A stretch of DNA of 24,949 nucleotides, taken from IMG/VR virus record IMGVR_UViG_3300045135_000293, positions 1-24,949 of that record; one strand, written 5' to 3'. Under the pieces are notes generated by a model that saw only the letters and a program-made list of their open reading frames with translations, did not search any database and was not told the DNA's origin. The stretch comes from a virus. How positions within the stretch are numbered: position 1 is the first letter of the stretch; each line of letters begins with the position of its first letter. Below are positions 1 through 4,342 of this stretch, piece by piece. A program made the translations under genes and the position numbers.

Positions 1-50
1 CATGTGCGGTAAATCATTGCGATTGTCGGGTTTTCGTATCTCTTGTCCAT
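1..50 (-). CDS. Start of an unknown minus-strand gene (partial)
   Basis: Read on the minus strand, an ATG at 50 opens a frame that stays open to the window edge and begins MDKRYENPTIAMIYRT. An AAGGA Shine-Dalgarno sequence lies six bases upstream of the ATG, which supports a real start. Only 16 codons are visible, so no family can be named. It is the next gene after the hairpin array (71-495) in the minus-strand direction. The array would therefore be in its 5' leader, or in the intergenic part of a shared transcript with the 180-aa gene upstream. Confidence 0.55.
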   Translation of the reverse strand, partial: MDKRYENPTIAMIYRT

Positions 51-70
51 TTGTTTTCCTTGTTATTTGC

Positions 71-495
71 GAGGCGACTGGGGCGTGGCATTGCTGCGTC
101 TCGATTGTGGCCTCTGGTTATTGGGCGAAAGCATCCTAACATCTCTGCGTTGGTCTATTGGCCCAAATTAGGTGGGGGCGACGAATGTATGGCATCGCTG
201 CGCTTGGACGGTGGCCCCCTGTAACTGGTTGGGAAGGGCTTTGGTCATGTGGCATTGCTGCATCGTATCAATGACCCTTCCCATGGAGCGTTCGGATTTT
301 GGCATTGCTGCGTGGTCATGATGGCTCCTGTAACTGGTTGGGAAGGGTGAACCGTCTGTAGCAATTCTGCGGCGAATGAATGACCCTTCCCTTGGTGCGA
401 TCTGAAATTGGCATTACTGCTGTCTCCTGTTGGCACCAAATAAACTGGTGGGGGCGTGCCATACATGGCATTGCTGCGGACATTGTATGACCCCC
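71..495 (-). ncRNA. Tandem array of eight GNRA-capped RNA hairpins
   Basis: Eight hairpins stand head to tail at 71-114, 121-166, 174-219, 231-282, 285-328, 340-391, 392-439 and 450-495. Outer stems of 5 to 9 bp differ in sequence but are each complementary: GAGGC, TTGGGC, GGGGGC, GGGAAGGG, GGAGC, GGGAAGGGT, TTGGTGC and GGGGG on the plus strand. On the minus strand each apex reads GCA-tetraloop-TGC (TGT in one), with tetraloops GCAA (four times), GCGA, GTAA, GAGA and one GAAT. Twelve bases separate outer stem and apex on each side in six hairpins; the other two have 13, or 12 if one mismatched pair is counted as stem. GNRA loops appear only on the minus strand, which points to an RNA made from that strand. 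Other-frame ORFs here are not convincing. I recognise no known RNA family. Confidence 0.85.
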
Positions 496-502
496 TGTAA
501 CA

Positions 503-1045
503 TTATGCTGCCATCGTTTCTGTGTGCAGCTTCTCAACCTCCTCAATCGTCCATACATCACGGACAATCTTATCCTCTGGCATCTTGTTCAGAATAGCCG
601 AGAAGAATTTATGGTTGCGTTTATGTGTGCGCATCAAACCCTCTTCAGACTGCACAACCTGCACTAGATCGTCGCGGGTTGCGTCACCAAGAGAGATGCC
701 AAGTTTCGGCAGCATAAACCGCTCAAACATATCTTTGGCATAAACTGATGCTGTGTTCTTCAGAGACACGGACGGTGTAGACGTTTCGCCCTTCTTTAAT
801 ACAACTTGGCGCGTGACTTTTTCAGCCTCACGCTTAAATGTAGCGCGGCTAGAGCGTGACCGACGACTGACATCCTCAGTTGCAATGCGCTCAAGCACAC
901 GCTCAGTTGCAGCCTCACGCAATGCTGTATCTTCACGCAGCATCTTCAGATATTTCTCAGCAGCCTCGCGGTGCGTCTTTGAGCCGTCCCACGCTTTTTC
1001 TACCGCTTCCAATACGAGTGATTTTTTAGGTTCTTGGTATGTCAT
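503..1045 (-). CDS. Hypothetical charged helical protein (180 aa)
   Basis: The protein starts MTYQEPKKSL and ends HTETMAA. An AGGGAGA Shine-Dalgarno sequence just upstream of 1045 supports this start over a longer frame opening at 1141, whose extra 32 residues look like untranslated leader. The sequence is rich in Arg, Lys and Glu and looks almost entirely helical. A central basic stretch around residues 55-75 (SRRSRSSRATFKREAEKVTR) could bind nucleic acid. There is no signal peptide or membrane segment. I do not recognise the family. The stop lies seven bases before the hairpin array, so gene and array probably share a transcript. An RNA- or DNA-binding role linked to the array is possible but only positional. 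Confidence 0.75.
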   Translation of the reverse strand: MTYQEPKKSLVLEAVEKAWDGSKTHREAAEKYLKMLREDTALREAATERVLERIATEDVSRRSRSSRATFKREAEKVTRQVVLKKGETSTPSVSLKNTASVYAKDMFERFMLPKLGISLGDATRDDLVQVVQSEEGLMRTHKRNHKFFSAILNKMPEDKIVRDVWTIEEVEKLHTETMAA

Positions 1046-1375: not shown

Positions 1376-1396
1376 TTCCTTTCTTCTTTCACTTTA

Positions 1397-1412
1397 CTAG
1401 CAATAATGCTAG
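1397..1412. promoter_or_regulatory. Operator-like palindrome 1
   Basis: The 16-mer CTAGCAATAATGCTAG has perfect 6-bp arms (CTAGCA/TGCTAG) around four bases. It closely matches the second palindrome at 1455-1470, starting 58 bp away. The pair looks like binding sites for a dimeric regulator. The ribbon-helix-helix-like protein encoded immediately downstream (1498-1680) is the obvious candidate. Confidence 0.6.
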
Positions 1413-1454
1413 AAGCAGTCAAGAAAATAAATCAGGGCTTGATTTGGAATATTA

Positions 1455-1470
1455 CTAGCTGTATTGCTAG
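1455..1470. promoter_or_regulatory. Operator-like palindrome 2
   Basis: The 16-mer CTAGCTGTATTGCTAG has 5-bp arms (CTAGC/GCTAG) around six bases and the same overall length as palindrome 1. It overlaps the candidate -10 of the plus-strand operon, and a further half-site-like ATAGCA follows at about 1473-1478. Confidence 0.6.
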
Positions 1471-1497
1471 GAATAGCAAAACACATAAGGGGCTGCT

Positions 1498-3199: not shown

Positions 3200-3536
3200 T
3201 TTTTACAAATCACACGCTTGGAAGTCAGACCCTGACGATTTATTTATGGAAAACGTCCTAGCATTCCGCAAGATCGTGCAGCTCTACGATTACGGCACAG
3301 AGTTTTACTTCCCCAACTACCGCGAAGCACCGTGGCATGTGCAAGCAGAAATTGGCGGTGAAAAGATCAACTTCTGGCCTCACAAGATGAAAGCGCATGT
3401 GGAGTACCGCAAAGGCGGGGCAGTAGAGGGCCGCTACGCAATCATTGACCTCATCAACGAGCAGATCGCAAAAGACGCAGACGGTGCATCCAATCCCGAC
3501 TATTGGAGTGATGACGAGTTTGATCTGTTTGAATGA
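3189..3536 (+). CDS. Hypothetical protein (115 aa)
   Basis: The start is the ATG at 3189 (MEYNFYKSHAW) after a GGGAGG Shine-Dalgarno sequence, inside the last codons of the nuclease gene. A longer frame from 3042 lies entirely within the nuclease and is not supported. The protein is rich in aromatic and acidic residues, ends DDEFDLFE and has no membrane segment. I do not recognise the family. The acidic Phe-containing C-terminus resembles the tail by which SSB-type proteins recruit partners, but that is only a resemblance. The stop overlaps the methyltransferase start. Confidence 0.75.
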   Translation: MEYNFYKSHAWKSDPDDLFMENVLAFRKIVQLYDYGTEFYFPNYREAPWHVQAEIGGEKINFWPHKMKAHVEYRKGGAVEGRYAIIDLINEQIAKDADGASNPDYWSDDEFDLFE

Positions 3537-4342
3537 TGCGGCATGTGGACATATGCAGCGGCATCGGCGGTTTTGCGCTGGGCTTTGAATGGGCAGAGTT
3601 AAGCAGCCCAGTTCTTTTCTGCGACATAGAGCCGTGGAGCCGCAAGATTTTAGCAAAGCATTGGCCTGATGTGCCGATTGCAGAAGATGTAAAGGAATTA
3701 GCAAATGACCCAGATGGACTTGTTCCAGACTGCGACATCATTACAGCAGGATACCCCTGCCAGCCCTTTTCACTTGCAGGGGAGCGCAGAGGCAGTGAAG
3801 ATGACAGACATATCTGGCCTTACATTTTCACCATTGTTCAAAGAAAAAGACCCTCTTGGTGCGTTTTCGAGAATGTTTATGGGCATGTCTCTATGGGCCT
3901 CGACGAGGTGCTATCTGACTTGGAAAGGCAAGGCTACGCCGCAAGGCCGTTCATTGTTCCAGCTTGTGCCGCTGACGCGCCTCACAGACGAGACAGAGTT
4001 TGGATCGTCGCCAGAAATGTGGCCGACAGCAACAGCGCGGGACTACAAGGGCGGCAGAACGCCAGAGACACTAGCCAAAGCAGGGCGCAACGAGACAAAC
4101 AGTCTGCCAGACGCAGTGAACGCCCAGATGGGCAAAACTGGCTCCCTGAACCCGCAGTGGGTCGAGTGGCTAATGGGATACCCAGAAGGGTGGACAGACT
4201 TAGAGGATTAGGAAATGCTATCGTGCCGCAGATCGCTATGCGCATAGGCCAGACGATCAAAGCGGTGCATGACATCCCAGCGCAGGGTCACGCGCACAAC
4301 AACGTCAACAAAGAAAAGGAAGACGACAATGCTAAAAATTGA
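3533..4342 (+). CDS. C5 cytosine-specific DNA methyltransferase (269 aa)
   Basis: The ordered motifs of C5 methyltransferases are present. Motif I is DICSGIGGFALGF for S-adenosylmethionine binding. Motif IV is GYPCQPFSLAG with nucleophile Cys76. Motif VI is FENV at 113-115. Motif VIII is HRRDRVWIVA around 151-160. The C-terminal motifs are VGRVANGIPRRVDRL and GLGNAIVPQ (about 209-233). The enzyme methylates cytosine at C5 in an unknown recognition sequence, probably to protect phage DNA from restriction. The region between motifs VIII and IX is short and low in hydrophobic residues, so the target-recognition domain is small. A second protein is encoded in another frame inside this gene (3705-4211). 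The start could be either of two adjacent ATGs. Confidence 0.9.
   Translation: MMRHVDICSGIGGFALGFEWAELSSPVLFCDIEPWSRKILAKHWPDVPIAEDVKELANDPDGLVPDCDIITAGYPCQPFSLAGERRGSEDDRHIWPYIFTIVQRKRPSWCVFENVYGHVSMGLDEVLSDLERQGYAARPFIVPACAADAPHRRDRVWIVARNVADSNSAGLQGRQNARDTSQSRAQRDKQSARRSERPDGQNWLPEPAVGRVANGIPRRVDRLRGLGNAIVPQIAMRIGQTIKAVHDIPAQGHAHNNVNKEKEDDNAKN
3705..4211 (+). CDS. Overlapping-frame methyltransferase-associated protein (168 aa)
   Basis: This frame lies wholly inside the cytosine methyltransferase gene, shifted by one base, yet it looks like a real protein. An AAAGGA Shine-Dalgarno sequence lies about eight bases upstream of MTQMDLFQT. The body carries segments that I recall from stand-alone phage proteins found with methyltransferases: LTWKGKATPQGRSLFQLVP, MWPTATARDYKGG and LNPQWVEWLMGYPEGWTDL. 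The last resembles the LMGFPxGWT segment of C5 methyltransferase C-terminal domains. Because the methyltransferase frame is also intact with all its motifs, both frames seem to be under selection. The role is unknown; target recognition or an accessory subunit is a guess. The family call rests on memory, not a search. Confidence 0.6.
   Translation: MTQMDLFQTATSLQQDTPASPFHLQGSAEAVKMTDISGLTFSPLFKEKDPLGAFSRMFMGMSLWASTRCYLTWKGKATPQGRSLFQLVPLTRLTDETEFGSSPEMWPTATARDYKGGRTPETLAKAGRNETNSLPDAVNAQMGKTGSLNPQWVEWLMGYPEGWTDLED

What the first reader, a model, noticed from the sequence alone, without database searches (positions are those of the whole stretch)
71..495. Eight tandem RNA hairpins with covarying stems and GNRA caps on the minus strand
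Each unit has an outer stem of different sequence whose arms are complementary (for example GAGGC/GCCTC, TTGGGC/GCCCAA, GGGGGC/GCCCCC, TTGGTGC/GCACCAA). Pairing is kept while sequence changes, which is covariation within one molecule. On the minus strand the apex is GCA-tetraloop-UGC(U): GCAA four times, GCGA, GUAA, GAGA, and one GAAU. Exactly 12 bases separate stem and apex on each side in six units, 13 in two. GNRA covariation only on this strand argues for RNA, not a DNA site. It matches no RNA family I know, and no CRISPR, attC or REP pattern. It may be a decoy for an RNA-binding protein, a processed small-RNA precursor, or a structural phage RNA.
Basis: partly seen in the sequence, partly recalled or inferred. 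Interest (0 to 1): 0.95.

Follow-up and report, generated by a model that had tools for sequence, protein, structure and literature searches.

The report
Phage RNA-guide array of TIGR-Tas type
The eight hairpins are a bank of eight two-part RNA guides lying between two phage genes, one of which belongs to the TIGR-Tas family of RNA-guided DNA-binding proteins; dozens of related marine phages carry the same bank with different guides, which makes it a good natural case for asking what these systems aim at and how the guides change.

Summary
In detail: eight tandem hairpins on the minus strand, window 70-495. All eight follow one grammar, with exactly 36 nt between stem arms: box C (YCA) - 9-nt spacer A - box D (CG/UG) - CA-GNRA-UG loop - box C (CCA) - 9-nt spacer B - box D (CG). 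This is the stem-loop form of a TIGR array (Faure et al. 2025, PMC12045711). The gene directly 3' of the array, cut by the contig end here but complete in relatives, encodes a 235-aa protein matching NCBIfam TIGR_Tas_endo (E 7e-22). Its only significant PDB match is TasR (9MTY, E 5e-11). It lacks a nuclease domain, so it is a TasA.

46 distinct related viral contigs carry such arrays. A covariance model trained without the window finds exactly its eight units and none in 0.53 Mb that includes TasA-less relatives.

Three features appear new: a GNRA-capped loop; an uncharacterised gene (window 503-1045) always directly 5' of the array; and spacers exchanged while stems stay in place (last slot: same stem in 42 of 46 arrays, 28 spacer pairs with that stem). 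Natural targets were sought and not found; all hits are at chance level. Function is inferred: RNA-guided DNA binding without cleavage. New variant of a known kind.

The parts
450..495 (-). TIGR stem-loop unit 1: arm GGGGG, box C UCA, spacer A TACAATGTC, box D CG, loop CAGCAATG, box C CCA, spacer B TGTATGGCA, box D CG, arm CCCCC
   Evidence: E 2.3e-8
393..438 (-). Unit 2: spacers ACAGGAGAC / ATTTCAGAT; the same spacer pair occurs in arrays of L003 and L005
343..388 (-). Unit 3: spacers TTCATTCGC / CAGACGGTT; loop CAGAATTG is the one non-GNRA loop
284..329 (-). Unit 4: spacers TCATGACCA / AAATCCGAA; the same spacer pair on a changed scaffold in L010 and L033
234..279 (-). Unit 5: spacers TTGATACGA / CATGACCAA
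174..219 (-). Unit 6: spacers CCGTCCAAG / TACATTCGT
121..166 (-). Unit 7: spacers ATAGACCAA / GGATGCTTT
70..115 (-). Unit 8, tasA-proximal slot: spacers CAATCGAGA / CGCCCCAGT; GAGG stem kept in 42 of 46 arrays
3..50 (-). First 16 codons of tasA (MDKRYENPTIAMIYRT), cut off by the contig end; complete 235-aa copy in L005:7220-7924
   Evidence: homology of the complete copy:
503..1045 (-). Conserved partner gene 'P1' (180 aa, no known family); ends 8 nt before the first stem

Best explanation
The hairpins are the guide array of a phage TIGR-TasA system of the stem-loop type. Inferred working: the operon P1 - array - tasA is transcribed from the minus strand as one RNA. The array is cut between hairpins into single units. 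Each unit is held by a TasA dimer through its two box C/D pairs (one at the stem base, one at the GNRA-capped loop), leaving two 9-nt spacers free. The two spacers pair with opposite strands of an adjacent DNA site. As this TasA has no nuclease domain, it would bind and bend DNA rather than cut it, possibly with P1 as partner, most plausibly to hold down a competing element or a host gene. Shown here: array grammar, covariation, linkage to a Tas homologue, linkage to P1, and spacer exchange on fixed stems. Inferred: transcription, processing, DNA binding and purpose.
For: Unit grammar uniform in all 8 window units, and 459 units (274 unique) across related loci, with spacer columns near random (0-0.17 bits) and box columns about 1-2 bits. 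Box C:D pairs covary: positions 1-36 Fisher p 8e-21, positions 14-23 p 2e-16, related units counted apart. Downstream protein: NCBIfam NF052498 TIGR_Tas_endo E 6.7e-22 over 197 of 215 profile positions, IS110 far weaker; only significant PDB hit is 9MTY = TasR. Published stem-loop TIGR arrays have palindromic edges, two 8-12-nt spacers and box C/D motifs. Homologues in cultured phages also have arrays: Rhizobium phage RHph_X2_25 and relatives with stem-CCA-9-CG-4-CCA-9-CG-stem units, Microcystis phage Mvi-JY20 with a 36-nt dual-repeat array. Held-out covariance test.
Against: No expression, processing or binding data. The Tas match lies below NCBI's equivalog cut-off (78.5 of 100 bits), as fits a nuclease-less relative. 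The AlphaFold model is poor beyond the N-terminal coiled coil and the fold search was uninformative. tasA is truncated in the window, so its sequence is taken from relatives. No natural target was found.
Confidence: 0.93

Rival explanations
1. The system does not act on foreign DNA but on the phage's own genome or on RNA (for instance as a snoRNA-like RNA-guided RNA binder), so the spacers would find partners in the phage's own sequence.
For: The Nop fold is shared with box C/D snoRNPs that guide RNA modification (PMC12045711), and TasA has no nuclease. Some spacer pairs stay identical on changed scaffolds (unit 4: window, L010, L033), as expected for a constant target.
Against: No excess of spacer-pair matches in 2.08 Mb of these phages and their relatives, in either orientation, against shuffled pairings. 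Spacers differ between near-identical phages.
Confidence: 0.15
2. The array is a bridge-RNA-like or integrase-aid device: TasA plus guides bends DNA to direct recombination or integration rather than to repress a target.
For: Weak IS110 similarity (E 2e-5); Faure et al. suggest TasA may aid integrases.
Against: No transposase DEDD domain in the 235-aa protein. Eight or more guides per array fit many targets better than one integration site.
Confidence: 0.1
3. The hairpins are a protein-binding decoy or structural phage RNA unrelated to guides.
For: Conserved GNRA-capped apex and stems, as in protein-binding RNA repeats.
Against: Two exactly 9-nt, near-random, rapidly exchanged stretches in every unit, bounded by box C/D motifs, next to a Tas gene in every locus with room.
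Confidence: 0.03

Closest known systems
TIGR-TasA stem-loop array of the Peromyscus leucopus gut contig (Faure et al. 2025, Fig. 7)
   Same: Tandem units with variable palindromic stems, two short spacers bounded by box C and box D, a nuclease-less TasA gene
   Different: Here the loop is a fixed 8-nt GNRA-capped minihelix, spacers are exactly 9 nt, the inter-arm length is exactly 36 nt in all eight window units, the array lies 5' of tasA, and a conserved P1 gene precedes it
Dual-repeat TIGR arrays (TasR, TasH, FpTasA; also Microcystis phage Mvi-JY20, L057)
   Same: Two 9-nt spacers, box C (CCA) and box D motifs, 36-nt guide length, Nop-domain protein
   Different: Edge repeats are constant there; here they are unit-specific complementary stems separated by linkers, so the period is about 50-60 nt
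Rhizobium phage RHph_X2_25 group (L056, L258-L260)
   Same: Gene - stem-loop array - tas order, box grammar, 9-nt spacers, Tas 33-40% identical
   Different: Loop between boxes is 4 nt without a GNRA minihelix; tas about 351 aa; upstream gene only distantly similar to P1 (hhalign E 7e-5, probability 63%)
IS110 bridge RNA and transposase
   Same: Nop-like RNA-binding domain, two-part guide loops
   Different: No DEDD catalytic domain here; many guide units instead of one bispecific RNA

Membership tests
TIGR-Tas system | Gene for a Nop-domain Tas protein next to the array | tested here: met
   NCBIfam TIGR_Tas_endo E 6.7e-22 (below its curated cut-off), PDB TasR E 4.9e-11 with profile; adjacent in every locus with room; only 16 codons in the window
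[quoted passage not shown]
   9 + 9 nt in all 8 window units; 274 unique units in relatives found with this fixed grammar
TIGR-Tas system | Box C and box D form covarying pairs at both edge and loop | tested here: met
TIGR stem-loop subtype | Variable but palindromic sequences in place of edge repeats | tested here: met
TIGR-Tas system | Array transcribed and processed into single guide RNAs bound by Tas | not testable with these tools
   No expression data
TIGR-Tas system | Tandem-spacer targeting of opposite DNA strands | tested here: inconclusive
   No target excess found in related phages, IMG/VR or bacterial genomes
TasR or TasH nuclease subtype | N-terminal RuvC or HNH domain | tested here: not met
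   235-aa protein; the TasR match covers TasR residues 154-295 only, after its RuvC part; no Pfam nuclease domain
CRISPR array | Identical direct repeats of about 25-40 nt between spacers of similar length | tested here: not met
IS110 bridge RNA system | DEDD transposase and element ends | tested here: not met
   no DEDD Pfam hit

The most novel reading that the evidence does not exclude
A three-part TIGR subtype: P1 is an obligatory new partner protein of nuclease-less TasA, and the arrays diversify by swapping 9-nt spacer pairs into fixed stem slots rather than by adding units at one end, giving phages a rapidly changing RNA-guided silencing repertoire.
Probability: 0.45. Interest if true: 0.85.

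Novelty: new variant of a known kind. Interest (0 to 1): 0.72.

Why it matters
Faure et al. name the natural targets and the origin of TIGR spacers as open questions, made hard by scattered metagenomic examples. Here are 46 arrays from one close phage group with many different spacer pairs on a shared scaffold, so turnover can be followed unit by unit. The conserved P1 gene is a concrete candidate for what a nuclease-less TasA works with. The group also links the compact 4-nt loop of Rhizobium-phage arrays with a GNRA-capped loop.

Tried and rejected
Rfam: nothing. Self- or relative-targeting: spacer pairs searched in 2.08 Mb of related phage DNA in two orientations, gaps 0-4 nt; counts like shuffled pairings; an earlier apparent excess at gap 2 vanished. 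Exact targets of unit 4 and of the most conserved unit in IMG/VR: 4 and 1 unrelated hits. Unit 4 in bacterial genomes: 37 stretches, 12 of them one repeat of a Lentisphaerae genome; a site in manC of two Paracoccaceae (L239, L249) looked attractive but is in 1 of 170 family genomes and the unit-5 allele does not fit ManC: treated as chance. Codon periodicity in spacer variants: not significant, p 0.15. Structure of TasA and P1: AlphaFold confidence 53 and 67, fold searches uninformative. No bacterial genome encodes this TasA closely.

Full report
What is there. The window is a whole 24,949-base IMG/VR viral fragment with phage genes: terminase, primase-helicase, tail fibre, endolysin. Its left end, read on the minus strand, runs: a 180-aa gene (503-1045, here P1), 8 nt, eight hairpins (495-70), about 20 nt, and the start codon of a gene cut off after 16 codons (50-3). 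No terminator-like site was listed between them, though that scan proves little.

The units. All eight parse with one expression: arm - [C/U]CA - N9 - box D - CA(GNRA)UG - box C - N9 - box D - arm, always 36 nt between arms. The same grammar finds 459 units, 274 unique, in related loci, always on the strand of the following gene; shuffled sequence gave 3 hits. Spacer columns carry 0-0.17 bits, boxes mostly 1-2 bits. Stems pair with their own partner and covary, and the box C:box D pairs at the stem base (C-G or U-A) and at the loop (G-C or A-U) covary strongly. A covariance model of 43 units from other phages finds exactly the eight window units and no match in 33 further sources, 0.53 Mb, which include TasA-less relatives as well as the Rhizobium and Microcystis phage loci.

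The protein. The truncated gene is complete in L005:7220-7924 and in close relatives, 83-100% identical where complete. It matches NCBIfam TIGR_Tas_endo at 6.7e-22 over nearly the whole profile, below the 100-bit equivalog cut-off. Its only significant match in the PDB is chain 9MTY, which the TIGR-Tas paper gives as the TasR structure. It lacks the N-terminal nuclease, so by the paper's naming it is a TasA. The model shows two long N-terminal helices, compatible with the Nop coiled coil, but is otherwise of low confidence.

Relatives in cultured phages. Rhizobium phage RHph_X2_25 encodes a 33% identical protein (hhalign E 7e-30) with stem-loop units on both sides; in its group the units read stem-CCA-9-CG-4-CCA-9-CG-stem. 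Microcystis phage Mvi-JY20 encodes a 23% identical protein beside a 36-nt dual-repeat array that ends in a terminator-like hairpin. The window's loop is thus an enlarged, GNRA-capped version of the compact loop repeat.

The partner gene. P1 homologues (48-100% identical) lie directly 5' of the array in every locus whose contig reaches that far. Searching by P1 instead found TasA in all loci with room; the six without it end 49-651 bases after P1. P1 has no Pfam, NCBIfam, PADLOC, PDB or PHROGs match of weight. The Rhizobium-phage group has a 199-aa gene in the same place that aligns end to end with P1 in a profile comparison, E 7e-5, probability 63%: suggestive only. The paper reports a ParB-like partner for some tasA genes; P1 showed no ParB match.

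Spacer turnover. Next to tasA, 42 of 46 distinct arrays keep a GAGG stem, while that stem carries 28 different spacer pairs. One unit (ACAGGAGAC/ATTTCAGAT) is identical in three contigs; most others differ between close relatives. Unit 4's spacers are identical in three lineages while its boxes and loop changed, which suggests selection on the spacers. This looks like exchange within slots, not growth from one end. That is inference.

Targets. None found. Spacer pairs have no excess of matches in related phages; exact searches in IMG/VR and bacterial genomes gave chance-level hits. The host is unknown; the nearest named relatives infect Sinorhizobium, so an alphaproteobacterium is likely.

Verdict. 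It is not categorically new, but it is a coherent variant with a candidate partner gene and visible spacer exchange.

Noticed in passing
window 503-1045 minus; L010 4715-5212; L034 4950-5447: Conserved uncharacterised gene P1 always directly 5' of the TIGR array; it diverges faster (48-100% identity) than TasA (83-100%).
   Followed up: partly
L057 4628-4921: Cultured Microcystis phage Mvi-JY20 carries a canonical 36-nt dual-repeat TIGR array (edge TGCGAGCC, loop CGAAACCC), directly 3' of an annotated hypothetical protein that is a Tas homologue.
   Followed up: partly
L056 3340-4990; L258-L260: Cultured Rhizobium phage RHph_X2_25 and prophage-like relatives carry stem-loop TIGR units before and after an unannotated tas gene; in L259 and L260 units also precede the upstream gene.
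   Followed up: partly
window 234-329, units 4 and 5: Spacer A of unit 4 (TCATGACCA) and spacer B of unit 5 (CATGACCAA) share eight bases; in the known target geometry both could address alleles of one site.
   Followed up: partly
L239 6540-6558 and L249 6325-6343: Exact 1-nt-gap match of unit 4 in manC of two Paracoccaceae; probably chance.
   Followed up: yes
L220, L224, L232, L233 and other contigs of the same Lentisphaerae MAG (PUNB01): A repeated element at many contig ends contains an exact unit-4 match with a 2-nt gap.
   Followed up: no
window 1394-1473: Inverted repeat of 19-nt arms (84% complementary), 42 nt apart, between the divergent gene sets; possibly a regulatory or replication site.
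   Followed up: no
window 3533-4342: C5-cytosine methyltransferase gene in the early region, 77% identical in DNA to Phage C72C1.
   Followed up: no
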